From NCBI GenBank assembly GCA_951799445.1, contig OX637294.1, positions 20,547,452 through 20,611,451 of the forward strand: a stretch of DNA of 64,000 nt. Reading direction: 5' to 3'. A model generated the notes under the pieces. It was not told the DNA's origin. It saw nothing but the letters and a program-made list of their open reading frames with translations, and searched no databases. Below are positions 3,880 through 62,995 of this stretch, piece after piece. Position 1 is the first letter of the stretch. Every line of letters starts with the position of its first letter. The translations under genes and the position numbers were made by a program. The stretch is from Pseudisothecium myosuroides. Its lineage: Eukaryota > Streptophyta > Bryopsida > Hypnales > Lembophyllaceae.

Positions 3880-4054
3880 CACTACAAGAGGAAGGGGTGT
3901 TTTAAGTAGTGTCCTAAACATCACGTCTTTTAAGTAAGTTTTTAAGTAAAATTTTACTAAAAAGACAATCTTTTTAGTAAAATTTTACTTAAAAACTTAC
4001 TTAAAAGACGTGATGTCTAGGACACTACTTAAAACACCCCTTTCTCTTGTAGTG
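3880..4054. mobile_element. Hairpin CACTA (CMC) MITE, copy 1
   Basis: A 175-bp near-perfect palindrome starts CACTACAAGAG and ends CTCTTGTAGTG. It is flanked on both sides by the 3-bp direct repeat ACA (3877-3879 and 4055-4057). CACTA termini and a 3-bp target duplication are the hallmarks of CACTA/En-Spm transposons. The element has no coding capacity and the arms (about 85 bp each) make it almost entirely foldback. A second copy is at 28310-28483. Confidence 0.9.
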
Positions 4055-4351
4055 ACATTAAGATGTCGGGCGATTTCTTGCAACAAAAGTATAGATTTTT
4101 GTGGATGCTGTATAAAACAAGGAAAATTTTCAATCACAGCATGTTGGTACTGACCAAAACAAGTATGTCATCAAGGACATGACTGCGGACATATTTATGT
4201 TTTAAAGATTGTCTGAAAAAACAATCATAGCCACATCAGCATCATTGGTCAAATTAAACTGCAGATAAGTTTGTGGAAGTTACAGCGGTTAAGGATAAAA
4301 TGGTTGCTTGAGGTTAAAAAAAACAAAATGGGAAGGCGGTTGAAAAAATGC

Positions 4352-6442: not shown

Positions 6443-7155
6443 GGGGTATTAGATTATCTCAACAGCTTTTCAATTTTCTATTACTTTTAGCATTTGGAGG
6501 TTGGAGCCATTTTTAGCAACAAATCAAAGAGCGCAGCTAGAGTAGAGTTTGGTTCCAATTTTTGAAGACTTCAAGGTTTGAAGAGTTGAAGATATGAAGA
6601 CTTAAAGACATGAAGATTTGTATGTTGTGACTTGAGGCTTGTTATTCCTAGCCGACTTTGGAGGCTTGTTGTATTTTGTTCCTAGTCAGTTTGGGAAGCT
6701 CGTTGTTTTTCATTTTTTCATTGTAAATTTTGTTGCAGACTATGTGGTGATTCAGTATTAGTCCCGTTTTGTGTTTGTGGCAACGAAGTGTGATTGATCA
6801 CCCATATGGTCAATCTTTTATATCGTTCCTATTGGTGAGGCTTGCTTGTTAATCACCCTGATTTTGAGGTTTAGGAGCTAATTTCTCAGACGGTTAGCTC
6901 ATAGTTTGGCCGTCCCGTTTTACTCATTCGAGGCCGTGGGTTCTTATCACCTACCTTTACCCTGACCATTATAGAGCCACAACAGGACATGCCAATGGGG
7001 AGGAGTTTGAAGATTGAAGAATGAAGATCGTAGACTGAAAAATAAAGACTAAAGATTAAACGATTTGACAGAACTCCATAGCAAACTATTCCCAGTCGCA
7101 GTTAGAATCCTCATGATTTTCTAAAGCAAACTCTCTCTATACGACAGCGTCGGAT

Positions 7156-7515
7156 TTAATGCAACATTGAGGTCTCGTAAATCTCTGGTAAAGCTTCAGT
7201 CGATAAGTAGGTAGTATCTAGATGACAGAACGTGAAGTAGCTTAGATGGTTTTTTTTACAATCTCCTGGATGGATTGGAAGCAGGTTCAATTTGAAAGTA
7301 CATAGAGTGTTCGGTTTAGGCGTTGTCGGAATTGATAGCAAGAGGCCAGTGAACTAGACTGAAATGCTTTGGACTCAAATGGCCATCAGCAGAGCACTGA
7401 TATTCAAGAGTATCTTTGAGCGCAACGGACTGACTGTAGTTGCTTGCATACACTTGTTTCCAATGGATAATATGTCTGTGAATGGTATTCTGACATTTCT
7501 GCAACAATACACCAA
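7156..7515 (-). repeat. Dispersed repeat R1, minus-strand copy
   Basis: Read in reverse, the segment shares long blocks with 18990-19280, 45020-45230 and 60110-60470, including CTATCAATTC, the GATCC-TCCAGG block and GATACTACCTACTT. It retains an internal part (GTTGCGCTCAAAGATA and TTTCAGTCTAGTTCAC) found otherwise only in the 60-kb copy, so it is the more complete version. Origin unknown; no ends or protein identified. Confidence 0.7.
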
Positions 7516-8521
7516 AAGTCATTGCTTTAATTCATATCTTCAGCAATTGCTGTGTTATTACAGTATATGTTTTTTTTTTGTTGAACTATGAATGATTTTC
7601 TTCAGCAAGCTCATAAGGTCATTGTTTTCAATATTAGTACTGATTCTAAATTAGGGCCCTACTTGGTTATTGGACATAATCCTTTCCTCTTCTCCAAACC
7701 AGATCGGTATTGTAAAATCTTGTAAATCTACAATCTAACATATGCTTTTTTAGGAAAGTTCACAATTATGGGTACCAAAAAAATTCATAAATGATAGCCC
7801 CATTTTTTTAATAAATTTTGACTAGGGGTACACCGTTTTGTATAAATTTGCTAAAACAAAATTTGGAGGCATTTCTAAGTATTGCAAAGTACCCAACAAT
7901 ACCCATTAAGTACATCTTAAAAAAGAGGAAGGATGAAAAGCAAATTTCATTTGTTTACATGGGTAAATGGAGAGGATTTACATGTCTAAGCTATTGAAAA
8001 TCAAGGAGAAAATGGATTGTCCAAAATCCCCAAACTCAACCAAAAAATATTACCAAGATATTATCATAATACTTATAGTATTGATTTTTTTTAATTGAAA
8101 TATGCAACAAATACTACAAGGATTTCTTGCAATCATCCATTGATTGTACATTATATTTCAGTGCAAAATTTAATTTATACATGAAGCTCTCTTCCATTGC
8201 ATCTCTTAGATTGATTACTGTTGTGAACTTAAATCACTAAGAACCCTTTCAACTCTAAATAATAGAATAACCAATATTTGATCCAAGATTTAAAAAATCT
8301 ATTTGAAATTTGTTTTCTTCTAATACAATAAACCAAAGTACATATTTCTATCTATAACTTCTAAATTTTAATTTTTTATGGTTATTTCTATTTGCACTCT
8401 TATTAGACAATTATTATTTAAGTGAAAAGAGACAAGGTTTCAAATATCAATTATTTTATTGTATTCCACCAAACAATGTAAAATATAAATTTTATCAATT
8501 ACTAAAAATTATTTTTTGAAA

Positions 8522-8804
8522 GTCTTGCTACAACTATCTTCTTTTGATGAAAATTTCAAATAAAGATGAAAAAGACATATTTTATGACATATTCAAATTT
8601 TGTTTTAAAACCTTGAAGTCATCTAGGAGGGTTGATGCCTAGTTTGTTTTTAAATTTATGCATATTTTAATATATTATATAAACAATTATATAAATGCGT
8701 CACCTGCTTTTATATTTTTAAATTGGTCCTTAAGGAATTTAACTAAATTCAAGCATAGTTTTTAATAAAGCATTTCTTTAAAATACTTTTTTTATTATTC
8801 AAAA
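8522..8804 (+). repeat. 283-bp direct repeat, left copy
   Basis: Nearly identical to 12009-12291 (I see two differences, one near position 8582 and one near 8785). It lies immediately outside the left, truncated end of the LTR element at 8805-12008. Confidence 0.9.
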
Positions 8805-8860
8805 AAATAATTTTTAAGTAATAAGTCTTTCAACAAATCTCATTCTTAATACATAGACTT

Positions 8861-10610
8861 TTAAACAAATCTCATACTTAAATTATTTTTTGAATATGGT
8901 AACCATAACTTCAACATAATCAGATCACATTTTCTTTCAATATTTTTTTTATTTTTAAAATAATAGTAATTAATTTTTTTAATAATATAATTGTATCTAT
9001 TAATAGCAATTTGTACACCAATGCAACAGTTTCCACAAATCTCATTCTTAATACATAGACTTTTATTTTCAATTTTACTTTTCAATTTTAAATTGAACTC
9101 TTTATTTTCTTTTGATAAAAGAATTATTTTATAATATGCATTCCATTGATTAGTATTGGAATTTTGTATTTGTTTATTATCTTCACAAGTACGGATAATT
9201 TTTTCTATATTAGAACAAGGTACATACTCTAATTTCTTTTTGCAATATGATTGCATATTTATTAAGGATTTTATTGGATCAATGAAATTTTTATTCGACT
9301 TTTCATTTCTATTTTTGCCTGCATTATGAAGAATCACAAGCACATTCCACATGATAAAATTCTTCCACTTAATTTGTTCTTTACATTTGTTTATAATCAC
9401 TCGAATTTTGAAAGTCTCATTATGAGGTTGAATAATAATTAATATTGTATTCACCACACTTGTTTTTTCTTTCAAAATATTTGTTTCATAAGACAAATCA
9501 TTTATCACTACTTTGTCTTCATTTCTTGTTTTATTTTCTGAATACTTATATTCTTTTAAGGATTTCTTTTGTAAATCAATTTCACATTTTAATGCATTAA
9601 TATCAACTTTAATTTTGTCTATTGATTTATTTAAATTAGCCAATCTTTGTTTAACAAGGAGAAAATTTTCATATAAATAATGTATCATATCTTTGAGTTC
9701 ATTTATTTTTTTATCTTTTGATTGAATATATTCCTTAGAATTTTCTTTTTGTAAAACATTTTTCTTTTTATGAATATTGATTTGAATATGAAGATCATGC
9801 TTTTCATTAGAAACAATCATAAACTTTTTATCTAAATTTTTCAATTGTGAAGATAATACATCCAATGTTTTTTGCATAGTAAATTTATCTTGAATTAAAT
9901 CTTTATTGATCTTACTTGTACAAAAGAATATTGCTGCCATTGATAAAAATTGTAATTGCAACCTAGTCATTTTTGTTGAATAATTAACTTCCAATTGGTT
10001 CATCTTAAGCTTCACAGACTTTGCTTCATTTTTTTCAAATTTATGTTTTTCTTTCAATAACTTTTCTATTTCAAGTCTCAAACATATTTCAATCTTTTTA
10101 TTTTCTTCCAATGCTTTTGATAAATCATCTGATTTTGTACATAATTCATTTTTAAGAGATTCAATACACAATTCATAGTTCTTTTGGTTATATTGAGCGT
10201 TATGACTAATTGTCAAAAGATTTGCCTCAGCCTTGTCACGTTGTGCAATTATTGATTTATATACCGTTTTCCAATAGATTTCTCGTTCATCAATTTTTTT
10301 AGTTAATTCTTTTGCCAAATCATTTTTAAGAACTTCAGTTTGTGATTTATAATCCTTTTCATTGTTTTTATAGATTTTTGAATGTTCCTCCAATATTTTG
10401 TTCTTCCAATTTTGATTATATTCATTTTCTTCTTGTACATTCAATTTCAAAATCAATAATTATTTGGTCACGGATTAAAATTTGATCATGTAGACCATCT
10501 CTTTCTTTATTCCAATTTCTAGCACAATCCCATATTTGCAACCAATTTTCATACAAATAATTTTCTCTTGATGTCCTTGGCCAAAAATTATCAAACTTTG
10601 GGTCAATCAT
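8861..10610 (-). pseudogene. AT-rich coiled-coil ORF in the gag position
   Basis: The first segment (10610-10425) starts MIDPKFDNFWPRTSREN and carries WLQIWDCARNW. A frameshift near 10430 joins it to a 500-residue ORF ending at 8861. The long part is rich in Lys, Glu, Asn and Ile with heptad-like repeats, typical of extended coiled coil, over about residues 1-300. The C-terminal third is less regular and contains scattered cysteines but no CCHC zinc knuckle. It starts about 50 bases after the primer-binding site, where gag normally lies. I do not recognise the family; it could be a divergent structural protein of the element or a captured host coiled-coil gene. Confidence 0.5.
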
Positions 10611-10662
10611 CCTATAAGCAATTGAATTTTTTTTTAAGGACTAGCCAACCTACTTTGTTGTC

Positions 10663-10680
10663 TCCCCGGCAGCGGCGCCA
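10663..10680 (-). other. Retroelement primer-binding site
   Basis: On the minus strand this reads TGGCGCCGCTGCCGGGGA, the motif seen just inside the 5' LTR of many plant Ty3/gypsy elements. It lies three bases after the LTR end (TACA). Confidence 0.85.
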
Positions 10681-10683
10681 TTA

Positions 10684-12008
10684 TGTAGATGGATTTTTAC
10701 TATAGAGTTAATTATAATAAAATTCCTATAGTTTTGAGTTCGTTCGCAGGGAGGTATGATTGCACTATAGATAATTCCTAAGGGAAACTAAATTAACCCC
10801 AAGTTGTGCACAATGGAAGGAAATCCATGGAATGTTCCTAACTTCATAAATTCAATAGATAGACTATTTTATTATAGTTAAATCCAGGATTGGAAACTTA
10901 TCAATTCCTTTGTAATCCTATAGCTTTATCTTTATTCTCCATTGCTCCATCACTTCTCACCAACCGCTCTGGTACCAGCTTCTATTGATTCCTCCAACAA
11001 TTCGCTCAGGTACTATTGATTTGATTCACAGCTTCTTCCGGCTTTGTTGCAATTGTATCCTTCTCTTCATTCTTACTTTCCTCTAATGTAACTTCCTCCA
11101 TAGTTTGGCATTTCATCCTTATATTATTTGATTGACAACAATATTTGCACTTCTTTCCCTTGAGTTTCAACTGTTTATTATCCATTGTAATATCCCTTAT
11201 TCTCACAATTCTATTGATTCAGTTTACAGACTCACTCTAATCACCCCATCTCTATTGATTAATCTTCCACTTTTCATCCTAACACACTCAATAACATCAT
11301 GCTCATACACCATTGACACACACTATTGAAATCAGCCATCACAATTGATAAAATAATTAAAACCAGATCCAAACTTGCATTCACATCCAATCACAACAAT
11401 AGAAATTTCTCACCCATTAAATCCACAAACTCCACACAATCACACATTCACAATTGATACACACAATTCAGCACACTCAATCATTCACATCACCATAGCA
11501 TAACACATCCAAGAATTCACACCATTGATAATAGCGACTCATATTATAAACTCCGCATTATATTTCACTTTGAAATTTACAATTGATCCTCACTGTAGCT
11601 TCACTACAAAACACTATCGATTCAACACATTCACAATCACAGACACCAGTACTATAGAAATTCCACTCCTCACTTCACTTACAAAATCACACAAAATTAT
11701 AGATCACTCACACACTCCACACACTGCCGGCCTCACCACCGCAGGAGCTCTGGCTTCCCTCCAGACTGAATTCTAATTTCGCTTGACAATTGATTTCACC
11801 CCAACCAGCGGATAACTACTTAACCGCCATCAATAGATTTCATCCAGTTCCTCATTACATCCATCTATTGATTAAGTTCTATAGAAAACCTTTATTAACT
11901 GGTAATATTGACATATTAATATCTTAAGTACTATAGAAATATGAACATTAGAGAATTTAACAAAATTTTGCTATTACTCACACATTCTCTATAGATTCTA
12001 TGACTACA
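10684..12008 (-). mobile_element. LTR, 1325 bp
   Basis: The plus strand begins TGTAG at 10684 and ends CTACA at 12008, a 5-bp terminal inverted repeat of the TG...CA type, and it abuts a primer-binding site. It contains many short repeats of the kind CTATTGATT and CACAATTGATA. No second LTR occurs in the window. Confidence 0.8.
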
Positions 12009-12291
12009 GTCTTGCTACAACTATCTTCTTTTGATGAAAATTTCAAATAAAGATGAAAAAGACATATTTTATAACATATTCAAATTTTGTTTTAAAACCT
12101 TGAAGTCATCTAGGAGGGTTGATGCCTAGTTTGTTTTTAAATTTATGCATATTTTAATATATTATATAAACAATTATATAAATGCGTCACCTGCTTTTAT
12201 ATTTTTAAATTGGTCCTTAAGGAATTTAACTAAATTCAAGCATAGTTTTTAATAAAGCATTTCTTTAAAATCCTTTTTTTATTATTCAAAA
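12009..12291 (+). repeat. 283-bp direct repeat, right copy
   Basis: Matches 8522-8804 almost base for base and begins directly after the LTR terminus CTACA. Confidence 0.9.
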
Positions 12292-18989: not shown

Positions 18990-19280
18990 ATTTTGAAATC
19001 CTATTTGATTCGTGTTACTGTCATTGTTGAAGAAATGTCAAAGTACCATTCACAGACATATCCTCCATTGGGAGTGAGTGTATGCAAGCAACTTTCATGG
19101 CAGTTCTCAGGCTATCAATTCCGGCAATGCCTAAACAACACTCCCTACTTTCAACTTGTGCCTGCTTCCGATCCTTCCAGGCGATTGTAAAGAAAAATAC
19201 CAAAGCTTCTTGACGTTCTGCCATCAAGATACTACCTACTTGCCGATTGAAGCTTTACCAGACATTCACGTGACCTTTCC
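18990..19280 (+). repeat. Dispersed repeat R1, copy 2
   Basis: Shares the blocks GAAGAAATGTC, CTATCAATTC, TTCCGATCCTTCCAGG and CATCAAGATACTACCTACTT with the copies at 7.2, 45.0 and 60.1 kb. It lies just after the USP gene and could overlap its 3' UTR. The following bases (CTTTCCAACGGTACCAAGAG and AAACAAAATAAAC) resemble the array at 46.7-47.8 kb. Confidence 0.7.
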
Positions 19281-19637
19281 AACGGTACCAAGAGCGCCGG
19301 ATGCACAATTTGTGAGATTTCAAAATGTCAAACAAAATAAACAAACAAAAAAATAAAACAAAACAAACAAACATACAAATTTAAGGTGATGATAACTTTT
19401 AAAATTAATCAAATATCAAAAAAATAAAATATCAAAATTTTACTTTATATTAAAAATATTACTTTATCTTCATCAAAAATCAAAATAAAAGTATAAATTT
19501 ATATATAAGTCACTAAAGAAAAGTTGTTCTTTTATTGCATATTCAATCATTTAGATTATACTATTAGTAATATTTGTTTAATATATGTCACCAAAATTGA
19601 TTATTTTTTAAAGGAAAATCTTGGAATTACATTTCAA

Positions 19638-21485
19638 ATGGATTTACTACAGACAACACGGAATCGGATTCTTCAAGAAATATTGAGACCATTGTCAACA
19701 CTAGGAAAAAAATATAAAGTGCTAATTATGGATACTACAACTACAAGGTTGATGTCCCAATTATTTAAAGATTATGAGATTTATGAAGAATGCATCTCCA
19801 AACTAGAAAGTTTACACAGTAGAAGGTCTTCCAATTCAAGAATTGATGCAATATATTTCATCCAACCTTCTATACAGAATGTTAAAAGATTGGTTAAAGA
19901 TATACAAATGCATTTTTACAAAATGATGTATGTGTTTTTTAGTACACCTATTGAAGAAGAGTTGTTGAAGGATATTACAAAAAAAAAATCTATTTTGAAG
20001 CATATTGGTGGCCTCAAAGAGATCAATTTAGAATACTTTGTTGTCAACAATCAAGCATTTACTACAAACAATCATGAGATTCTCAACTACATGCTTGAAG
20101 AAAATACTTGTGAAGGATTATCTACTGTTATTGATATTATAGCCACTCGCCTTGTCACTGTATTTGCTTCCATGAAAGAATTTCCACATATTAGATATCA
20201 AATTGGTTTGTCTGATAATGCAACATTTAATGATTGTATTCCTACCAAAGTAGCTGCAGCTTTTTGGAATGAATTCATTAAACGCAAAGAAAAATTTCCA
20301 AGATATCCAACCATTGAAACTTGTGACTTAGTAATTGTAAATAGATTCACAGATCTTATAGCATTGCTAAGACATGATGTAACCTATGGTGTACTATGTC
20401 GTGATACATTCTTAGTGCAAGATAATGTATTATTATATGAATCTACTACAAATGAAAATAAAAAATGCATATGTTTAGATTGGCGGGATCAAATATGGAT
20501 GGAGCTACAATATATGAATATCAAAGATGCAAAGACTACTCTTGAAAGTAAAAAAGAAAAATTCATTGCCAATAATGCATCAATGCAATACAAATTAGCA
20601 AAATTACATGGCTCTAAATATGAGCAACACAATTGTGATACAAAATCTCTCAAAAAAATAGTGTCTTCAATTCCAGCATATATTAATGAATATCCTATTA
20701 TTACCTCTCATTTAGATATTGTAAATGATTTGATTAAGGTAGTGGAAGAGCGTCATTGGATTGAGATTTCAAATTTTGAAATAAAAGCCATGGAAGAAAA
20801 TCTCAACACTACTGCAATCCATAAATTGCAAAAGTTTTTTAATACAACTGCTAACAACATCAATAGGGATGACAAATTGCGATTGATTGTGATTTTCTTC
20901 ATCACGTGTTTTCACAAACTATCTTCTAAAAGATACAATGAAATTATGGAATTGGCTAAACTTAATGAAGAAGATAAAAAATTATTATCTTATTTGGAAT
21001 CAATTGTTGGAATTTGGACGAAAAAACCAATCTTAGATCAAACACTAATTGGTTATCTCGCTCATAGTCTACATCGATGCCAATTATCAGAAGAAGAATA
21101 TCCTTTTATAAATAAATCGTCATCAAGTGAAGAGAAGCTTATTAAAGACAAGGATTATATGTCAACACCACAACCTTTACAATGGATAGGCAAGAAACAT
21201 GTGAAAGATAATGTTGAATGTAAAGCAACAAGTGAAGGTAAAAAGATTGAAACCCAATCTCAAACAACTTCAATTTTTCCTCGTAACATTTTACAAAGGC
21301 AAAGACATCAAAAAAAGAAGTTGGTGATTTTTGTTGTTGGAGGAATATCTAATTTAGAAATAGGTACTATTGAAAAATTAGCTTTTGAGTTGAAGCATCA
21401 AATAGTTTTAGGTTCTACTCACCTTGAGGATCCTTCTGAATTCCTTTATAAATTACAAAGTGTTGCAATATCTAAGGTGCATTGA
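19638..21485 (+). CDS. Intronless, AT-rich Sec1/Munc18 (SM) family protein
   Basis: An uninterrupted 615-residue ORF from the first in-frame ATG covers nearly the whole SM fold. Recognisable in order are TTRNRILQEIL and VLIMDTTTTRLMSQ (N-terminal domain 1), IDAIYFIQPS, VFFSTPI, GGLKEINLEYFVVNNQAF, IATRLVTVFASMKEFP, PTKVAAAFW, ETCDLVIV, LSEEEYPF and LVIFVVGGIS, ending with IVLGSTHLEDPSEFL. SM proteins clasp syntaxins and SNARE bundles to drive membrane fusion. It lines up with the plant KEULE/SEC1 group. The block that in KEULE reads DRSIDQIAPVIHEWTYDA is strongly altered here (NRFTDLIALLRHDVTYG). All introns of the 31-37 kb gene are absent, which indicates a retrocopy. Codons are mostly A/T-ending. 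No poly(A) tract or target duplication is obvious. Function uncertain. Confidence 0.75.
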   Translation: MDLLQTTRNRILQEILRPLSTLGKKYKVLIMDTTTTRLMSQLFKDYEIYEECISKLESLHSRRSSNSRIDAIYFIQPSIQNVKRLVKDIQMHFYKMMYVFFSTPIEEELLKDITKKKSILKHIGGLKEINLEYFVVNNQAFTTNNHEILNYMLEENTCEGLSTVIDIIATRLVTVFASMKEFPHIRYQIGLSDNATFNDCIPTKVAAAFWNEFIKRKEKFPRYPTIETCDLVIVNRFTDLIALLRHDVTYGVLCRDTFLVQDNVLLYESTTNENKKCICLDWRDQIWMELQYMNIKDAKTTLESKKEKFIANNASMQYKLAKLHGSKYEQHNCDTKSLKKIVSSIPAYINEYPIITSHLDIVNDLIKVVEERHWIEISNFEIKAMEENLNTTAIHKLQKFFNTTANNINRDDKLRLIVIFFITCFHKLSSKRYNEIMELAKLNEEDKKLLSYLESIVGIWTKKPILDQTLIGYLAHSLHRCQLSEEEYPFINKSSSSEEKLIKDKDYMSTPQPLQWIGKKHVKDNVECKATSEGKKIETQSQTTSIFPRNILQRQRHQKKKLVIFVVGGISNLEIGTIEKLAFELKHQIVLGSTHLEDPSEFLYKLQSVAISKVH

Positions 21486-23977: not shown

Positions 23978-25335
23978 TTAAATGGGTGCAAACTTTGAGA
24001 CTTTTCTAGGCTTCCACCCTGAACAAAATTTGGCAATGCGGTTTTTGATTCCCATCAGAAACCAGCCATCATCTTTACAGACTCCGTAGTCTTTATAAAA
24101 GACAATCATTATGGTTTTGATTTTGGAGCTAACAATGTCCTTGAATGGTAGTTGAACAAAGCTGGCTCGTTGCAATTGATTATGCCATTGCTGGTATGGC
24201 TCTACTCGTACCACTCTTGTTTGCCCTTCACAAGCAATGACGTTTTTAATCTCTGCATCAAAAAATTCTCTTTCAACCAAGACTTTGTTTGGGTCATCAA
24301 GAGGCATGGATATTTCCATCCCTTCAAATATTGTTGAGTAATGCTCAACACTCTCCCGAAAGCGGGTCATAAAAAATGGAGCATTTAACCTTGCATTCAA
24401 CCCCACAATAGCAAATACCTGCACGTTCGGAAAACAATGGAGTTAATGCTTCATTATAAACATTCATGAGCCCAAATCCATTGCCTTAATTAGATGAAGT
24501 AATAAGAAACAAAGGCAATATGCTTCGCTAGACAAACAGCTACTTCCAGTGTTCTCGTTAGATACGGCCATGCAAGGTGCCATAAACGAGGATGCTCATT
24601 AATGAAATTGAAACTGAACAGAAGATGCTAACTGTGACCTTAGATATGTACCTTGGGATTCATGCTTTGAATCCTTCTCAAGAAAACTTCGCAAGGGTTT
24701 GTTGCCATTAGAGACTCATCAAGAAGATGGTGTAGCTTATCGGTACACACTGCAATCACTTCATTGTCTCTCAAATTCACATCCCTAGCCGTGCTTGATT
24801 CCCAACATCCAGTCAGTGCAACAAATTCTTCCCCACTCTGCTACAAACGTTTTCTTGGATGTGGTGAATCAATAGTTACCTATATAAAAAAACAGAATTA
24901 TGCTGTAAGATTCATTTATGTACATCTGAACATGACAAGGAATTAACCAATGAGCTTTACAAACTGCACACTAATGGAAGGTCGTAAATTGGATGCCAAA
25001 TTGCTATAAGTGAACAGGTTGGCCAACAATTGTAGATACTTGTTATACAAAGGTGGGGCGGCCCATCCGGCCCTCTTCCTTAGTTGTTGCATAAGGCTTG
25101 GGAATTCTACTCCATAGCTTATTCCGTAGTATATCACATGGACACAAGTAGCACCTTCAAAGGCATCTACCAGCGATTTTATGATGAAATAGTGTCCAAG
25201 TTTAAAGAACGGGTAGTTTTTGGTGTACATGCAAATTTCTTTAAATGCAATCGCTGCAGAGGGACAGTTATTGTTGATTGCCATGTAGAGCTTTTCACCG
25301 GTCCCTGACAATCTTGCAACCTGTAGGCAAAAAAA
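23978..25335 (-). pseudogene. GRAS-domain transcription factor pseudogene
   Basis: Three exon-like blocks on the minus strand match the GRAS domain. The first (about 25325-25050), after an acceptor TTGCCTACAG, encodes ARLSGTGEKLYMAI and YPFFKLGHYFIIKSLVDAFE, then HVIYYGISYGVEFPSLMQQL, the VHIID/PFYRE-side motif of the family. The second (about 24890-24652) encodes DNEVIAVC and SLMATNPCEVFLRRIQSMNP and ends in a donor AAG|GTAC. The third (24418-23978) encodes NAPFFMTRFRESVEHYS, VIACEG and the terminal SAW-like FCSGWKP. An in-frame TAG near 24842 and loss of the leucine-heptad region and much of the middle show decay. Intact GRAS proteins are nuclear regulators. Confidence 0.75.
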
Positions 25336-28020: not shown

Positions 28021-28690
28021 TCTCTACTCTTCACTAAGATCATTGATAAAATGAATTCCCTGGTCACTAATCAAAACTTGTGGAACTCCAAATCGCAAAA
28101 AAATATTCTAAAATAAAAAATTTGTTGTGGTCTTTTTATTGGTGGTTTTCACTACCTTAGCCTTAATCCATTTTATCAAGTAATCCACTGCCAAAAGATG
28201 CCAAAGTATGTTTTTCATGAGATGATGTAAGGTGGATTAGGCCAACATAATCTATGCCCTATTTTTTAAATAGAACAAAGGTGAAGAAGGGTTAAGTGGG
28301 AGCATCATACACTACAAGAGAAAGGGGTGTTTTAAGTAGTGTCCTAGGCATCACGTCTTTTAAGTAAAATTTTAAGTAAAATTTTACTAAAAAGACAATC
28401 TTTTTAGTAAATTTTACTTAAAAACTTACTTAAAAGACGTGATGCCTAGGACACTACTTAAAACACCCCTTTCTCTTGTAGTGATATGAAAGTCATTCTT
28501 TGCATACTGTTGGCATGCATCACACCATGTGGCATATTAGCGAGCATTCACATACATAGTGGGCCAAAAGTAACTGGCCCTAGGGATTTTGCATCAAAAA
28601 ATGCCTTAGGAAATGCCCCTCGCAAGTGCCATCATGGCATGTTCCAAAGATTTTTGTGGCCTTAAGTTTATTCACACCCCAACAAAGGTT
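28021..28690 (-). pseudogene. Ty3/gypsy integrase relic
   Basis: On the minus strand, decayed but recognisable integrase pieces appear in order: HDGTCEGH, YFWPTMYVNAR and CDACQQYAKN (the HHCC zinc-binding region), then LLAVDYLIKWIKAKVVKTT (catalytic core strand) and RFGVPQVLISDQGIHF (second catalytic Asp region). Stops and frame changes interrupt it. The CACTA MITE at 28310-28483 splits the HHCC part from the core. Confidence 0.75.
28310..28483. mobile_element. Hairpin CACTA (CMC) MITE, copy 2
   Basis: A 174-bp palindrome almost identical to 3880-4054, with CACTACAAGAG and CTCTTGTAGTG ends, flanked by the target duplication ATA (28307-28309 and 28484-28486). It is inserted inside the gypsy integrase relic. 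Confidence 0.92.
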
Positions 28691-42215: not shown

Positions 42216-42711
42216 AAGGTAACCTCTCATTCAATTTTTTTCATTCACAAATGAGTGGCTTTGCTAAACAAATGCATCTATCGGAAGATGACTGAGGGTG
42301 ATAGCAAAAAACACTTCTACAATTTTTTGACACACATTTTAAATAGTTGTATCTTTTTCTTAAAACTTTTGAATTATAACTCTAAAAGATCCAAGATTTA
42401 TGAGTGAAATACTCATGACTATTGTACATTTGAAAGAATTTTTTGAATCTAAAAAAAACTTCTATATAGAAACATGTTACATTGGATTTTATCTATAGAA
42501 CCTTTTTTTCTTGAGGGCAAATGAACTTTTGAATATTAGAATATAAGGATATTTTTTTTAGTTATATGTTATAAAAACTAGCTTTTTTTAACTTACTTAA
42601 AAAATTTATCAAAAGAAGAAAAATAAGGCACAAAATTTAAAAAAAAATAGTAATTGATAGAATTGATGTTTTATATTGTTTAGTCAAAAACCAAAAAATA
42701 GTTAATATTAA

Positions 42712-43347
42712 CCCCTAAATGCCCAAGGCCTGCTTTAAGCTTCCTGAAATTTGCTCTAAATTGAACAAAAAGCCAACATTTTGATAAGTTGTATCAGTTT
42801 TTTAAAATTGTAACCGTACAAATTCAAACTAGACATGTTAGAAATCACATATATAGGAAAAGAAAACACAAGAATATCACTTATGGATTGAAAGATTATA
42901 ATGTTTGATCATGAGGGTGTTAAACTAAGAATTTCTTTCACTCCTTTTTTCACATGTCAAATCTAAAAAATTGGTCACCAAAAAAATATGAGGTTGAAGG
43001 ACCTAACATGCATAACTTTAATCAATTTATGGCTTCTCAAAAACTGCTCTACAATTTTTTTAAATGAATTTCTAATGTGATTTTTTCTCCAAGATCTAAT
43101 GTATTTGAGGCTCATTTCCAAGAGCCCTCAACACTACGGAAAGTCAAGATTGCAATGGGTACCCTTGCACAAAATCTTGAATAGAAAAATCATAATCAAT
43201 TTTCATAATCAGATTTTTGATGCTAAAATTAGACTTCCAAAAGAATTTTTCAAAAATATAAATGTCTAAAAATAGAAAATTTGTTAGGTTTTATTTAACT
43301 TCAAATTATTGTCAACACCCAAATTGGGTGCCTTGGGCATTTAGGGG
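42712..43347. mobile_element. TTAA-flanked element, 636 bp
   Basis: A perfect 18-bp terminal inverted repeat, CCCCTAAATGCCCAAGGC, is bounded on both sides by TTAA (42708-42711 and 43348-43351). No ORF of note lies inside. TTAA target duplication is diagnostic of the piggyBac superfamily, but the CCCC start is my only other hint. Confidence 0.7.
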
Positions 43348-43351
43348 TTAA

Positions 43352-44180
43352 AACCTCATCTCTTTCTTCAAATAATAAATATCTAATATTTTCTTCATAT
43401 TTGATAACTTATACTCATTTGTTCATTTGAAAACAATAACAATGCAAATAGAAATAACCATAACAAACTTTAATCTAGAAGTAACAAATAGAAATAGAAC
43501 TTTGATTTATTATGTTTAAAAAAAGAATGTCAAATAGATTTTTTTAATCCAGTTACAAAATGGTCACTTTATTTAGTGGTTAATGGGATTTTAATGAGTC
43601 AAGTTCACAACACTAATATAAGCAATGCATTGGAAGAAAGTTTTATGTTTGAATCCTAGTATGAATTTAATTGTCCAATGAAATATAATGTTGCAATCAA
43701 TTGGTGATTGCAAAAGACGCTTATATTATTTGTTGCCTTTTTTTAAATTGTAGAAATTAATTAGTTTTATCAATATTATGATTACAACTTGGTATTATTT
43801 TTTGGTTGAATTTGGAGAGTTTAGACATGTGTTTCCTCTCCATTTATCTATACAAACAAATGAAATTCACTTCTCATCCTTCTGACTTCTTTTCTAAGAT
43901 GTATTTGGTAGGTATTCTTGAATATTTTGTAGTACTCCAATTTTTATATTTTTCTAGTGAATTTCTACAAAAATGGTATACTCCACTCAAATTTACAAAA
44001 GAAAAAAGAAAGGCTACTCTATGTGACTTTTTTGTATCCATTGTTGTGAACTTACTATGAAGTCATGTATCAAAGAAAAATTGAATTTGCAATCATTCAT
44101 AAACTTACCACCAGAACATTCAAATTGTAGACCTCTTCAAGCATAGTCTCGGGCATTTGCAGTGTTATTTTTTGAAACCC
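43352..44180. other. AT-rich spacer
   Basis: No supported gene. The ORF at 43806-44060 has no recognisable motif. Confidence 0.4.
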
Positions 44181-45019
44181 TTCTACAAGAAACAATATGG
44201 AGGTTATGAGAATTGGCTATAAAAATTTAAGATTTTAACCCTAAGAAAAAGGTACTCAAAAGTATTGTCAAAATCCTCCAAATTGTTAAGTGTGACATAA
44301 CTTTGGGAATACTATTATTCAATCATTCTATTTATGAAAAATACCAAAAAAATATGATAGAACCACATTCTCCTTGTGTAGCCTTGGTAAAAATTTATGG
44401 CAATCCGAGTAGAATTCCAAAAGTTATGTATCCAAACTCAATCGTCAGACAATGTGTGACACAAAATAGTTCAAGTGCAATCACCCCAACACAAGGTACC
44501 AACCATGAAACTTGACACCATAACCTTCTCTTTTCACATGACACAATGTAAGGTAGGAGGCTTGAATTTGGGAGGGTCATTTAGAACCGCCATATAGACT
44601 CGCCTAGAATAAACATGAGGTGGTCTTTAAATGGACCTTCTATAGTCATTGAATGGATCAATAAAAAATTATTATTTATTGCAAGAGCCAATCATTGTCT
44701 TGCTTTCCCCATTTGTCTCTAGAAGTTGCAAGTGAACGGTTTATGAAAGACCTAGGGTCATAAATAGGGACCTATGACACATCTTGTTTGAAAATTCATA
44801 AGTAATTCAAAAATGCTTCAAAAAATACAAAACGACTTGTGTTACAATCAGAATCTATTTCTCTTTGTCTGGAAAATGAGCAAAAAATAATCCCATCCAA
44901 GAAACCACATGAAAAAGGCGAACTAGCCCTTAGATGCTCGCTTTTAGAGCCTGCTACCTTAGTCTAAAACAAGTAAATAAGTTTAAACTCAGTGCTTTGT
45001 TTATGGCAAATTTAGCCCA

Positions 45020-45230
45020 AAGCGTTTTTGTCTTCACCTCTCAGGCTATCAATTCTGGCAATGCCTAAACAACACTCTCTCTACTTCCTAATTGTACCTG
45101 CTTCCGATCCTTCCAGGCAATTCATTTTTCAAGAAAAACACCTAAGCTTCTTCCATCAAGATACTACCTACTTGTTGATTGCAGCTTTAATTAGCAGACA
45201 TTTACGTGACCTCAGCGTTGCACTCAATCC
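45020..45230 (+). repeat. Dispersed repeat R1, copy 3
   Basis: Contains CTATCAATTC, TTCCGATCCTTCCAGGCAAT and CATCAAGATACTACCTACTT; lies within duplication copy A. Confidence 0.75.
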
Positions 45231-45244
45231 GACGCAACCTAATG

Positions 45245-45451
45245 TCAAGAAGCAGAATCCGTGGAAAAATCAACAGCCCGTTTAGGTTTGATCTCCAGCT
45301 GGTCAAAATTCAAATCAACTAAGATTGCACCTCCAGTTTGCGAAAATCTTGACGAGATGCCAGCTCCAATGAATAAAACCGTCTCCATCTGCTCCTTGTC
45401 ATGGATCACAAAAGATTTGCTCACTAGCAAGAAAGCTTCATGCGGATGCAA
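45245..45451 (-). other. Conserved ORF downstream of proline-rich gene, copy A
   Basis: Encodes SFVIHDKEQMETVLFIGAGI, RFSQTGGAILVDLNFDQLEI and ends FSTDSAS. The equivalent in copy B (60728-60510) differs at a few positions and has a stop where copy A has Q of DKEQ. It follows the proline-rich ORF on the same strand and might be a 3' exon or untranslated region. Family unknown. Confidence 0.35.
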
Positions 45452-45455
45452 TTGC

Positions 45456-45990
45456 TCAAGTCTCCAGCATGCGATTTACCCTAAAGAGGCTGATCCCGCT
45501 CGGGATCCCGCTCGTGGTTGGCAGTCCGCAATAATGCTTTAGGCCGTAATTAAGAACGCACAAAGCCAGGAGCACTAAGAGCCATTCTATAACAATGAGC
45601 CTAATGGTTGATAGCTTCGAAGCTCGAGTTGGAGAGGTTATTGGTGCCTTAGATGCAGGAGCTGGCGAAAGAATCCTTGGTGGCAAGTCTCTCCCAGGCG
45701 TAGCATCGCTAGGAGAAATGATTGCTGGTCGCGAATTAGGAGGCGGCGGGGGAGGCCGAGGTGGATTTGAAGGGCTTGGTGCAGGAGCATTTCCAGAGTC
45801 AACAGCCGGCTCAGGAGCTGGTACCGCAACTAGCTTCCTCTCCGTGCGATCGTGCACCTTAACATATGGAGAACACTTGCGTGACTTGACATTGCCGGAA
45901 ACTGGAGAGTCGGAGGCTAACGCGTAGCAAGAAAATGTGAGGAGCAAAAGTGCAAAGAAAGCTTGTACTGCTCATCGCCTCGTCGCTTGA
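45456..45990 (-). pseudogene. Proline-rich membrane protein, copy A
   Basis: The open frame encodes a hydrophobic leader (LLTFSCYALAS), NVKSRKCSPYVKVHDRTER, VAVPAPEP, a Pro-rich block with PPRPPPPPPNSRP, RILSPAPASKAPITSP and a membrane segment (IEWLLVLLALCVL) with a short tail. So the design is signal peptide, Pro-rich ectodomain, single membrane span. The start is lost: upstream ATGs at about 45990 run into TGA where copy B has an Arg codon (CGA), and copy B's internal ATG is absent here. Unless it starts upstream by splicing, this copy cannot make its signal peptide. Role unknown; cell-wall or surface association is only a guess from composition. Confidence 0.6.
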
Positions 45991-46699
45991 TCCAAGACCA
46001 TCATCATCGTTGATTACTGCTCTATAAAATCTCGGCCAATACTTGCACTACAACTACACACGCATCATCATAAATTACTTAATTAAAAATTGGTTTCCAA
46101 CTCTTCCAAATCTCAGGTCTAGAGCTCACTCAACCTTCACGCTCCAATGCTAGCAATGATTTCACTAAGGCTTCACACCGAATGCAGAATCTACAATTTG
46201 CCATTGTAACGACGAGGAAACAGCGTCAACTCTGCCAATCCTACTGAAGCAGTGCAAACCTATTAGTAAACTCAAATGTTCACATAACTCGGAGACATGG
46301 TTCATACATACATCCTCCATGGCGACATCTGATTTGCTACAATTGTACAGAATGCTCCTGAGAATGCTGGAAGAGATTACGAGACCAGGATTAGTTAATT
46401 TGTCATGGCGTTTCTTGGACCAAGACTCAGAAAAGATCATGAAGCAATCTCTGGCTAAGTTAAGGGCAACGTAATGAGATGGAGTTGAGGAATGCAATAC
46501 TTGCTTGCTCACACCAAGTCACGATCGTCGGTGTTGTGGAATGAACTCAAATGCAGCGCTAGTGCAACGCGATGAGGGCGTTCCGAACATCAAGGCATAG
46601 AAACTCATGCTACAGTGAAGGGATTGCGGGCCTACGAATTGAAGTGAGTGCAATGGAGTCGGGGGAAGCACTATCGTAGTGTGCCCTAAGTGTGCAGCA

Positions 46700-53991: not shown

Positions 53992-55352
53992 TTGGCTATG
54001 GGGTGATTGCATGAAAGACTGGTCAATTTCATCACATGTTGGCAAAACTAAGGTTGTCTTTTGCTATAACATTTGAATTATGAATCCAATGCCAAAAACA
54101 AAATATAGAATGTCTAGATGTCTTGATTGTAATCATAAACCTTATTTTTCAAAAAATTAAAAAAATCATTTAATATTTAAAGTTCAATTTCTCTAATTTG
54201 TCACACTTTCAAGTTTAGAGGTTTTGAATACTTTTGAGCAGTTCAAACTAATGATTTTCAGTTGAAATTTCTATGGCACATTTTTGTAGTAGGCAGATAT
54301 GTTTCTATCAAAGGGCATCTAAAAATACATTATTTGATGTCCTCCACATCTGTGCAAAGAGGCCTCCCTTGCGCGTGCAATTGTGAACAATAGAAATGAT
54401 TTTGACATCATTTTTTTTTGTTGAAACTCATCACTAGGAAGTCCTCCCAAATGGCCAATTTTTAGTTTTTTTTTACAATTTTTTTCCTATTTATTACAAA
54501 TTAAAATGTCAAAGTATGTAGTTTTTTGCTACAATTCTATGTCCGAGAATATGTCCCAATAAATACATACTTTGACGTTTTAATTTGTAATAAATAGAAA
54601 AAAAACTGTAAAATCCCCCTAAAAATTGGCCTCTTGCAAGGACTTTCTAATGATGAGTTTCAACAAAAAAATTGAGGTCAAAACCATTTCTATTGTTCAC
54701 AACTGCACGCGCAAGGGAGGCCTCTTTGCACAAACGTGGAGGATATAAAATAATGTATTTTTAGATGTCCTTTGGTAGGAACATGTCTGCCTACTATAGG
54801 AATGTACTTTAGAAATTTCAACTGAAAATCATTAATTTAAGCCGCTCAATCCAACGGTGCTAGTATATGAGCCCAAGAATGCAAGCTTGTAAGCATTGAG
54901 CCTACAATATAGGTACCTATAATATAGATACCCCACACTATACAAGGTGTGTGTATTATAAACACTTATAATATGGATATTTGTAACATATATACTCTAT
55001 AATCATAGACGATATCTATAGTATATACACCTATAACATAGGTGTATAGTATTCTAGGCTCATGGGCTCACACTCCTATGCTCACATAATAGCAACCCTC
55101 CGCTCAATCATATTCAAAATCCCTAAATTTGAAAAATGATAAATTAGAAAAATTGAACTTTAAATATTAAATGGTTTTTTAATTTTTTTGAAAAATAAGG
55201 GATATAATTACAATCAAGATATCTACAAATAGCTTTTTTATTTTTGGCATTGGAATCTTAATTCAAAAGTTATAGCATAGAACAACCTTGTCTTGCTAAA
55301 GTGTGACAAAAACCGACCAGTCTTTCATGCAATCACCCTATGCCAAAATCAC
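53992..55352. repeat. Large foldback with ~540-bp arms
   Basis: The left arm (53992-54515) and right arm (54560-55352, excluding an insertion) are inverted copies. Outer ends: GGGTGATTGCATGAAAGACT on the left and its complement at 55318-55340. Inner parts: GTCAAAGTATGTAG and CATACTTTGAC, with a loop of about 45 bp. The right arm is interrupted by the element at 54852-55099. No ORF is found. It may be a foldback transposon or a hairpin-RNA locus. Confidence 0.8.
54852..55099. mobile_element. Mutator-like MITE, 248 bp, with 10-bp target duplication
   Basis: Flanked by CCGCTCAATC at 54842-54851 and 55100-55109. Imperfect terminal inverted repeats: GGTGCTAGTATATGAGC on the left, GGTTGCTATTATGTGAGC read from the right. 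The interior is ATAG/GGTACC-rich and related to 27860-28020. A 9-11 bp duplication is typical of Mutator-like elements. Confidence 0.75.
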
Positions 55353-59432: not shown

Positions 59433-60109
59433 ATAATGATTTTTATAATTATGTGTCCACTGAAAGAGTGAAAGGGTGAAGGGGTCATGAAACAAGGCTA
59501 TAAAAATTGCAGATTGTAATTCTTAAAAAAAGGTTATCAAAAGTACTGAACCCCCTAAAATGTCAGGAATAATAGATCTTAGGGAATACTATTCTACAAT
59601 CATTCTATTTATTAAAAATACCAAAAAATAATGGTAGAACCTTATTAACCTTGTGCAACCTTGGTAAAAATTTTATAGCAATCCGAGTAGAATTCCAAAA
59701 GTTATGTATCTAAACTCAATCCTCATACAATGTGTGACACAAAATAGTTTAAGTGCAATCACCCCAACACAAGGTACCAACCTTGAAACTCTATATTATA
59801 ACCTTCTCTTTTCACATGACACAATGTATTCTAAAACAAGCAAATAAGTTTAAACTCATAACACCATCCTCCAACAATTCTTTGAGAGGGTTGTAGATTT
59901 CTAAGATTTTCCATACTGATTTAGTTTGGAGGAGTGGATAAGGTCCAGTAACCAAGTAGGGCCTCATCACAGAATCAGTACATATTGGAAAGAATGACCT
60001 TGAATGTGAGCTCGCTGAAGAATTTAATCATCGATAGTTCAACAAAAGGAAAGCTTATACTGCAAATAATACTGCAATAACTGGAGATATGAACTAACCC
60101 AATGACTCC

Positions 60110-60470
60110 TAGTGCATTGTTGAAGAAATGTCAGAGTACCATACCCTCCATTGGGAATAAGTATATGCAAGAAACTTCATGCAGCAGTTCCGTTGTGCTC
60201 AAAGATATCCTTGCATATCAGTGCTTTGTTTAAGGCAATTTTTGCCCGAAGCGTTTCAGTCTAGTTCACCTCTCGGGCTATATATCAATTCCCGCAATGC
60301 CTAAACCACACTCTCTCTTCTACTTTCAAAATTGAATCTGCTTCTGATCCTTCTAAGCGATTCATTTTTCAAGAAAAACACCTAAGCTTCTTGACGTTCT
60401 GCCATCAAGATACTACCTACTTGCTGATTGCAGCTTTAATTAGCAGACATTTACATGACCTCAGCGTTGC
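60110..60470 (+). repeat. Dispersed repeat R1, copy 4
   Basis: Long version, with GAAGAAATGTCAGAGTACCAT at the start and GCTCAAAGATATCC and TTTCAGTCTAGTTCACC internally, as in the 7.2-kb copy. Confidence 0.75.
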
Positions 60471-60509
60471 ACTCAATCCGATGCAACCTAATGTCAAGAA
60501 ATAGAATCT

Positions 60510-60728
60510 GTGGAAAAATCAACAGCCCGATCAGGTTTGATCTCCAGCTGGTCAAAATTCAAATCAACTAAGATTGCACCTCCAGTTTGCGAAAATCTTG
60601 ATGAGATGCCAGCTCCAATGAATAAAATCGTCTCCATCTACTCCTTGTCATGGATCACAAAAGATTTGCTCACTGGCAAGAAAGCTTCATGCAGATGCAA
60701 TTGCTCAGGTCTCCAGCATGCAATTTAA
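60510..60728 (-). other. Conserved ORF downstream of proline-rich gene, copy B
   Basis: Reads SFVIHDKE-stop-METILFIGAGISSRFSQTGG and DLNFDQLEIKPDR. The TAG replaces the CAG codon of copy A. Its conservation may reflect only the recent duplication. Confidence 0.35.
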
Positions 60729-60888
60729 CCTAAAGAGGCAGATGACTGTCGGCATGAACCACTGAATTGCTACGTCGTCCCCAGCATGGCAGCGATTCCG
60801 GACACAATAACGCTGTTTCTAACACAGAAACACTGCACAAACACAGGATTATTGCAAAGGTGCTTAAAACAATAAACACCACTTTTGA

Positions 60889-61287
60889 TTACTTTGACGC
60901 TTGAATTGGAGAGGTTATTGGCGCCTCAGATGCAAGAGCTGGCGAAAGGATCCTCGGTGGCAAGTCTATCCCAGGCATAGCATCGCTAGGAGAAATGAGT
61001 GCCGATCGCAAATTAGGAGGCGGCGGGGAAGGCCGAGGCGGATTCAAAGGGCTTGGTGCAGATGTGTCTCCAGAGTTGATAGCCGGCTCAGGTGCTGGTA
61101 CTGCAACTAGCGTCCTCTCCGTGCGATTGTGCACCTTAACATATGGAGAACATTTGCGTGACTTGACGTTGCCGGAACTTGGACAGTCAGAGGCAAATGC
61201 ATAGCAAGAAAATGTGAAGAGCAGAAGTACGCAGCAAGAATATTGCATTGCTCGTCGCCTTGTCGCATGATCCAAGACCGTCATCAT
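60889..61287 (-). pseudogene. Proline-rich membrane protein, copy B
   Basis: The only copy with a full signal peptide: MQYSCCVLLLFTFSCYAFAS, then SGNVKSRKCSPYVKVHNRTE, VAVPAPEP, PPRPSPPPP, PPRILSPALAS and ITSPIQASK. A TAA follows ASK directly; the same frame after it would encode a membrane segment (KVVFIVLSTFAIILCLCSV). So this copy ends just before its membrane anchor and could be secreted. The ATG at 61287 is the first; that of MQYS is 13 codons later and better placed for a signal peptide. Compared with copy A the ectodomains are about four fifths identical. Function unknown. Confidence 0.6.
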
Positions 61288-62995
61288 CTTTGATTACTAC
61301 TCAATCTATAAAATCTCGGCCAAAATCTGTGCCAAAATTGCAACACGCGCATCATCACAAAATACTTTACTTAGATTGATTTCCAACTAGAGCCTTCATG
61401 CTCCAATTATGCTAGCAACTAATTCACCAAGGCTTAATTCCGAATGCAGAATCTATAAATTGCCATTGTAACGACGACGAGGAAACAACGCCAAAATCCT
61501 ACTGAAGCAAATCTAATAGTAAACTCAAATGTTTACAGAATCGGCAAAGGCGTGGTTCCTACAAGCATCCTACATGACGACATTTGATTTACTACAAAAC
61601 TAATGCTCTTGAGAATACTAGGACAGATCATGAGACCGCTATTAATGAATGAATTTGTCTTGGCGTTTCTTCGACCACAGCTCAAAAAAGATCACAAAGC
61701 AATCACTGTGAGCTCCCAATTTGTCACTTGGGACTCGTAGAATTATTTTTTTGGAAATTTGCAATTTAAAGTTGATAAAAGTATAGAAAAATCCATAAAA
61801 AGAGTGTAGAACCGAAATAGGGTTGTGTCATACCCATTATAGTATTTGATCTAGATTTGTGTTTTTTACTTAGAATCCCCCAAACCTTGCCTAAAAATAG
61901 TATAGAAATAACGAAAAGGTTAGATTTGGAGGATTCAAGTCGCACAGCCCCAAAAGGGCTAAATCCCACCATGAATGTGGCGATTCATGGCTAGGTCGGT
62001 CCGAGGGATCCACAACGAGGCCACTAGGTTGGGTCCTAGAGTTAGATTTAAAATTCCCCATTAGATCGACGAATTCCCAAAATCCCGATTGTTATCATGC
62101 AGGAGCCACTCACGCAAGACCGGGCCCTTGGAGGAATCTACAGCCCAAGGATGGTGTTTTAGGGTGAATCCCATGCCAGGAGTCCAACGGCGAAATCGGT
62201 TCGCCAAGATTCCTCCACCTGCAGAAGATTCCCGCACCGTCGCTAATTCAAGGAGATGTCCAGTTTAAGTCTCCATTGACCAATCGTGCCAGGTACGGAA
62301 ACACACCCGCACGTCTTTCATACGACTCCCTGAGAGACCACGTGAAAAATCCCGGCATCTTCCGACTTGCAGAAGAACCTTTTTCCGGGTGGTCAACCCT
62401 CCTAACCTCCAACAGGAATTTCATGGAAATTACCCAGGTTACAATAAAATCTCACTAAAAATTAGACTAGCTTGTTTTATGTTAATAATGCGCTCCGTGA
62501 AGTTTCACGACATTCCGATAGCGGCAAGTACCCGAACCGGCGAGATTCATCGGGAATTAACCACGTGGCGGGGTCCCCGCCGCGTTGATCGACATTCCGG
62601 GACCATACGATGGCGAAACGAAGTCAACCAAAAGTCCTTCCCGACTCTCTCGCACCCACCGGAGACCCTAGGCTATTCACATTTCTCAAAATAGGAGACC
62701 CCCAAGATCTAAGATTTTACCACGATTTGGTTTTTAAACTAAATTAGCCTACAATGGGTTTTTGGCCTCGGTACGGGGGGTAAGGGGTTTAGGACTAAAC
62801 ACGGCGTTCTGGATCCAACGGCGCAATCCGTTCGGCGATTGGAGCTAATCTCCAAAAGTTAGGATGTTGGTCCAGCATAGATGGTAGAAGTAGAAATTTA
62901 GGATGTAGGATGAAAATCTTTGAGGATGAGGATGAAAATCCCCGTTGATAAGGTTACCTTAGAACTCTAGAGGGAGGGGTGAGCCCTTGGAAATC

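What the first reader, a model, noticed from the sequence alone, without database searches (positions are those of the whole stretch)
8522..12291. LTR-element fragment inside a 283-bp direct duplication
The element with one LTR, primer site and coiled-coil ORF ends exactly at two nearly identical 283-bp direct repeats. Integrase gives 4-6 bp. A duplication of this size suggests capture of an incomplete cDNA at a widely staggered break, or template switching during repair. The missing 3' part fits an interrupted reverse transcript.
Basis: partly seen in the sequence, partly recalled or inferred. Interest (0 to 1): 0.75.

Follow-up and report, generated by a model that had tools for sequence, protein, structure and literature searches.

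The report
Retrotransposon fragment with a repair scar
A plant jumping gene that lost its tail is flanked by two copies of a 283-base piece of DNA, at least partly ordinary host sequence, most likely left by error-prone repair of a chromosome break rather than by an unusual way of inserting.

Summary
The repeat is real: 8522-8804 and 12009-12291 match at 281 of 283 bases. They flank what looks like a minus-strand LTR-retrotransposon fragment: one LTR-like block of 1325 bp (12008 to 10684), a primer-site-like sequence, and an ORF that ends about 70 residues before two of its three relatives. The first 71 bases of the repeat are host DNA: an old paralog at 42564-42709 runs unbroken from left flank into repeat.

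The left junction is not clean. Bases 8805-8882 (perhaps to 8894) look like templated filler: a 36-base copy (35/36) and a 17-base copy (16/17) of the element at 9030-9065, plus a weaker inverted copy of the left-flank edge. Such patchwork marks polymerase-theta-type end joining. The right junction is a precise TG end beside GTCTT.

I think the element integrated normally, then lost its 3' part in a break, and repair copied 283 bp of host DNA and patched the gap. One-ended insertion at a wide stagger remains a serious rival. A simply interrupted reverse transcript would keep the 3' LTR instead. The genome-wide test got no answer. Unusual in detail, ordinary in kind.

The parts
8522..8804 (+). 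R1: left copy of the 283-bp repeat, read here as a repair-synthesised copy of host DNA
   Evidence: 281/283 identical to R2; first 71 bp and the left flank are homologous without a break to 42709-42564
12009..12291 (+). R2: right copy of the repeat, directly abutting the LTR end; its first 5 bases GTCTT would be the integrase target-site duplication
   Evidence: that GTCTT is the duplication is inference
8805..8882 (.). Filler between R1 and the element (may reach 8894)
8828..8863 (+). Filler piece: 36-nt direct copy (35/36) of 9030-9065
   Evidence: 0 of 200 shuffles as good
8865..8881 (+). Filler piece: 17-nt direct copy (16/17) of 9035-9051
   Evidence: 1 of 200 shuffles as good
8799..8822 (-). 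Inverted, gapped copy of the left-flank edge (8498-8520), overlapping the last bases of R1; weaker than the direct copies
   Evidence: 2 of 200 shuffles as good; not significant with the whole filler as query; alignment printed (0 of 4000 sampled AT-rich stretches of the window as good)
9030..9065 (-). Template of the two direct filler copies, inside the ORF (9064-9032 codes KSLCIKNEICG)
8864..10456 (-). 531-aa open piece of the ORF; homology to P0001 and P0002 ends about LKLWLPYSKNN (8914 to 8882)
10425..10610 (-). N-terminal 62-aa piece of the same ORF in another frame (FWPRTSRENYLYENWLQ)
   Evidence: 30/57 identical to P0003 and 23/50 to P0002
10662..10680 (-). Primer-binding-site-like TGGCGCCGCTGCCGGGGAG, 3 nt after the LTR; resemblance to tRNA-Asp is recalled, not computed
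10684..12008 (-). The single LTR-like block, 1325 bp, TGTAG...CTACA
42564..42709 (-). Old paralog of left flank plus the first 71 bp of R, without the element

Best explanation
An ordinary plant LTR retrotransposon integrated on the minus strand with a normal 5-bp duplication (GTCTT), which would explain the precise LTR end at R2 (inferred). Later a double-strand break removed its 3' part, including the 3' LTR (inferred). The left broken end was extended by copying 283 bp of host DNA that normally lies to the right of the insertion site, either from an element-free homolog (synthesis-dependent strand annealing) or from the right flank of the same or the sister chromatid through the shared GTCTT (inferred). 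The new strand left that template at ...ATTCAAAA, folded back on the left-flank edge for about 20 nt, copied the element end at 9030-9065 twice, and was sealed to the element at 8883-8895 by polymerase-theta-type end joining (inferred from the patchwork). Shown: the repeat, host origin of its first 71 bp, the TG end next to R2, the ORF ending before two relatives, and the direct filler copies. Inferred: the order of events, the template and the enzymes.
For: Filler copied from both sides of the junction, two direct pieces from the element and one weaker inverted piece from the left flank. Polymerase-theta joining in mouse stem cells leaves templated inserts in cis (snap-back) and in trans, defined there as copied from within 250 bp of the break, and the authors compare them to products in C. 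elegans and Arabidopsis (PMC5730883, passages); the element template here lies about 140-180 bp from the junction. Barley deletions with filler, 13%, are ascribed to SDSA (PMC3706897, passages). The right junction is a precise TG end while the left is ragged, as expected if integrase made one and repair the other. The flank-to-R1 junction is ancestral. ORF homology stops at the filler; P0001 and P0002 run 71 and 68 residues past the last shared motif. At 8586 R2 and the paralog agree, so the change lies in R1.
Against: A left 5-bp duplication cannot be seen apart from R1, so normal integration is not shown independently, and the LTR end is judged from one LTR only. That R runs on natively into the right flank is not shown: the paralog covers 71 of 283 bp and three further 71-bp pieces of R show no similarity there. 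The inverted piece is AT-rich, chosen after inspection, and not significant when the whole filler was the query (about 0.6 of shuffles as good); its source lies about 285-305 bp from the end of R1, outside the 250 bp used in the cited study. The same study reports theta-made tandem duplications occasionally accompanied by cis inserts at staggered breaks, which fits the first rival too. P0003 has no counterpart of the last shared motif and was left out. No empty site and no other element copy could be examined.
Confidence: 0.5

Rival explanations
1. Insertion-time event: the intact U3 end of a broken or incomplete cDNA was joined by integrase, or captured by end joining, at a break with nicks 283 bp apart. 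Both overhangs were filled in, duplicating R, and the ragged cDNA end was joined to R1 with filler.
For: Gives the same anatomy in one event. Tandem duplications between opposed nicks are established in mouse cells, and those made without the usual end-joining factors, by polymerase theta, are larger and occasionally accompanied by cis templated inserts (PMC8355091 and PMC5730883, passages). Precise TG end.
Against: Needs a 283-nt stagger. A 5'-LTR-only duplex is not the expected product of a simple interrupted reverse transcript (textbook order, recalled); it needs a plus-strand stop after the second transfer, or a broken cDNA.
Confidence: 0.27
2. Patch-mediated break repair: a staggered genomic break was patched by copying from another chromosomal copy of the element, duplicating R.
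For: Natural rice insertions forming tandem duplications are reported (Vaughn and Bennetzen 2014; the paper is not held; only its title in reference lists and a citing sentence seen). Filler present.
Against: Copying from a genomic copy would not be expected to begin exactly at the LTR's terminal TG.
Confidence: 0.13
3. Tandem duplication of R first, with the element inserting later between the copies; or an assembly artefact.
For: Neither is excluded without reads or relatives.
Against: Insertion would have to hit the exact boundary of the copies, and the filler at the other boundary would need a separate event.
Confidence: 0.06

Closest known systems
Polymerase theta-mediated end joining with templated inserts
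   Same: Filler copied from near the junction in direct (trans) and inverted (cis) form, as described in PMC5730883 (passages)
   Different: The 283-bp copy is longer than the 250-bp reach used to define flank-derived inserts there, and the inverted piece is only weakly supported; no genetic test here
Patch-mediated double-strand break repair / tandem duplication at nicked breaks
   Same: Insertion flanked by direct duplication of target DNA
   Different: One junction is a precise LTR end, the other filler; the preferred model needs no second nick
Truncated plant LTR retrotransposons; Athila/Tat-type (OTA) elements
   Same: One LTR plus part of the internal region; 1.3-kb LTR and a tRNA-Asp-like primer site (both the likeness and the lineage are recalled)
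   Different: The 531-aa ORF piece has no Pfam family above cut-off and only three relatives among 7990 scored candidates, so the lineage is not established

Membership tests
LTR retrotransposon | TG...CA terminus with inverted ends | tested here: met
   TGTAG at 12008, CTACA ending at 10684
LTR retrotransposon | Primer binding site just inside the 5' LTR | tested here: inconclusive
   TGGCGCCGCTGCCGGGGAG 3 nt after the LTR; tRNA match recalled, not computed
LTR retrotransposon | Two LTRs | tested here: not met
   Only one LTR-like block in the window; hence described as a likely fragment, not filed as an intact member
LTR retrotransposon | gag/pol domains | tested here: inconclusive
   The 531-aa ORF piece has no Pfam family above its cut-off; the 62-aa piece was not scanned, and the lost 3' part could have held such domains
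Target-site duplication by integrase | 4-6 bp identical flanks | tested here: inconclusive
   Flanks are 283 bp; a 5-bp GTCTT duplication would be hidden inside R1/R2
Theta-mediated end joining scar | Filler templated from nearby flanks, cis and trans | tested here: met
   Direct pieces: 0 and 1 of 200 shuffles as good. Inverted piece weaker: 2 of 200, about 0.6 with the whole filler, 0 of 4000 AT-rich stretches
Theta-mediated end joining scar | Dependence on polymerase theta | not testable with these tools
   needs genetics
SDSA from a homolog | Element-free allele flankL-R-flankR exists or existed | not tested
   The genome search gave no answer (13 requests); the in-window paralog supports flankL-R over 71 bp only

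The most novel reading that the evidence does not exclude
A one-ended integrase insertion: an LTR cDNA whose plus strand was unfinished joined the chromosome at its U3 end only, and the stalled intermediate was resolved by breakage 283 bp away, fill-in and theta-type joining, giving a hybrid of integrase and repair ends with a pseudo-target-site duplication.
Probability: 0.2. Interest if true: 0.55.

Novelty: new member of a known kind. Interest (0 to 1): 0.33.

Why it matters
It shows how an apparently huge target-site duplication can be a repair scar, and gives junction signatures (one precise LTR end, one filler end) that would let surveys of truncated plant LTR elements separate post-insertion decay from aberrant integration. 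If one-ended integration were proved, it would add a route by which incomplete cDNA enters plant genomes.

Tried and rejected
Repeat as part of the element: rejected for its first 71 bp, because the paralog at 42564-42709 joins the left flank to R without the element. Clean truncation at 8805: rejected by filler and ORF homology. A 7-nt AATATGG match between the right-flank edge and the element edge was considered as junction homology and dropped: 3.7% of 20,000 random draws of 20-nt pairs share a 7-mer. A 15-mer shared by the left-flank edge (8506-8520) and 8880-8894 is rarer: its score was reached by 1 of 4000 AT-rich 37-mers sampled from a pool of 7204, and 1 of 20,000 random draws not matched for AT shared a 13-mer (draws closer than 400 bp were skipped but counted). 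It leaves open whether 8883-8894 is element or filler. Relatives: the protein search gave 3 hits among 7990 scored candidates, a capped number; the alignment search returned only P0002, itself in the query, among 7998; viral contigs gave 189 pattern matches and no confirmed relative. Paper searches: searches returned 0 papers; searches gave nothing that I used; led to the papers cited, of which I saw listings and passages only. The Gymny paper (PMC2633040, four passages) has 0 occurrences of 'coiled' in its main text, so it gave no lead on the lineage. No structure prediction, coiled-coil prediction or tRNA comparison was run.

Full report
Observation. The two repeats are as described: 8522-8804 and 12009-12291, 281 of 283 identical, differing at 8586/12073 and 8785/12272. 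Between them, on the minus strand, lie one LTR-like block of 1325 bp (12008 to 10684; TGTAG...CTACA), a primer-binding-site-like sequence 3 nt inside it (10680 to 10662), and an ORF in two frames (10610 to 10425, and 10456 to 8864). BLAST found no other copy of the element in the window.

Host or element? The left flank and the first 71 bp of R align to 42709-42564 on the minus strand without a break at 8522. The flank matches at 60 of 79 positions and R at 47 of 71. The R part scores 52 against a shuffle mean of 20.8 (maximum 44), and 0 of 2000 shuffles reach it (shuffles of 2-base blocks). So R begins as host DNA, and the flank-R1 junction is ancestral. Three further 71-bp pieces of R show nothing there, so host origin of the rest of R, and the R-to-right-flank continuity, are assumed. 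At 8586 the paralog agrees with R2, so the change is in R1.

The left junction. The 531-aa ORF piece has three relatives among 7990 scored candidates: P0001 (190 of 280 residues identical), P0002 (92 of 280) and P0003 (37 of 51). The N-terminal piece matches P0003 and P0002. Alignment of the C-terminal parts with P0001 and P0002 shows that our ORF follows them up to about LKLWLPYSKNN (8914 to 8882). P0001 and P0002 then run 71 and 68 residues further, with IW[DN]PGI near the end. P0003 was left out of that alignment; it lacks the LKLWL motif but also has IWDPGI near its end. The sequence past that point, 8805-8882, is a patchwork. Bases 8828-8863 copy 9030-9065 at 35 of 36 positions (0 of 200 shuffles as good). 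Bases 8865-8881 copy 9035-9051 at 16 of 17 (1 of 200). Bases 8799-8822 resemble an inverted copy of the left-flank edge (2 of 200; with the whole filler as query about 0.6 of shuffles were as good). Against AT-rich stretches of the window, 0 of 4000 sampled (of 7204) matched the flank edge as well as the inverted piece does (alignment). These pieces were chosen after looking, so the counts are optimistic, least so for the 36-nt copy. A 15-mer shared by 8506-8520 and 8880-8894 leaves the exact filler end uncertain. The template at 9030-9065 lies inside the ORF stretch that aligns with P0001 and P0002 on both sides, though it is itself weakly conserved.

Mechanism. Plant LTR elements in one survey have 5-bp duplications in 93.4% and 4 or 6 bp in the rest (13,566 elements, selected partly by their duplications; PMC6317226, passages), so 283 bp is not an ordinary integrase product. 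The right end is a precise TG terminus; the left end is filler. I read this as an ordinary insertion (5-bp GTCTT, now hidden inside the repeats) followed by loss of the 3' part and repair. The left end was extended by copying 283 bp of right-hand host DNA, the nascent strand snapped back on TTCAAAA to copy the flank edge, then copied the element end twice and was joined. Cis and trans templated inserts mark polymerase-theta end joining (PMC5730883, passages), and filler-bearing deletions are ascribed to SDSA in barley (PMC3706897, passages). The order of events, the template and the enzymes are inferred. On rechecking I lowered this reading from 0.55 to 0.5 and raised the first rival from 0.22 to 0.27 (and the novel case from 0.18 to 0.2), because that paper also reports theta-made tandem duplications at staggered breaks with occasional cis inserts.

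Template switching in repair is supported. An interrupted reverse transcript in the simple sense is not: by the textbook scheme (recalled) the 3' LTR is made first and the 5' LTR is completed last. A stop in plus-strand synthesis after the second transfer, or a broken cDNA, could still give the fragment, and a one-ended insertion at a 283-nt stagger could give the same anatomy.

Limits. The host genome search did not complete in 13 identical requests, so other element copies, the empty site and allelic forms were not seen. Assembly error cannot be excluded. The host is probably a land plant: of 182 hits to the Sec1-like ORF 120 were listed, and the named ones among them are, as I read the names, plants; the best hit is unnamed. 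The species is unknown.

Verdict. A real and well-preserved scar, but an instance of known repair processes acting on a known kind of element.

Noticed in passing
19524-21485: A 653-aa uninterrupted Sec1-family ORF (Pfam Sec1, E 1.1e-72), about 30% identical to plant KEULE/Sec1a proteins and 62% over 57% of its length to an unnamed 370-aa protein; possibly an old, still open retrogene.
   Followed up: partly
10610-10425 and 10456-8864 (minus strand): An ORF family right after the primer site of an LTR element, with a conserved FWP.[ST]SRE start (P0002, P0003 and ours) and IW[DN]PGI near the end of all three relatives; no Pfam family above cut-off for the 531-aa piece.
   Followed up: partly
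44272-46218 and 59549-61480: Direct duplication about 15.25 kb apart, pieces 80-95% identical.
   Followed up: no
1-941 and 61704-62646: Inverted similarity of the two window ends, 77-85% complementary over about 940 bp; parts of 7147-8592 also have inverted relatives within 42564-45235, at 59891-60484 and at 19023-19276.
   Followed up: no
3880-4061 and 28309-28490: Two copies of a near-perfect palindrome (arms 97-98% complementary), MITE-like foldback elements.
   Followed up: no
23978-24424 (minus strand): Fragment of a GRAS-family protein (Pfam E 1.8e-27, profile positions 238-374 of 374), perhaps a pseudogene remnant.
   Followed up: no
54095-55245: Nested inverted repeats with arms of 109-185 nt.
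   Followed up: no
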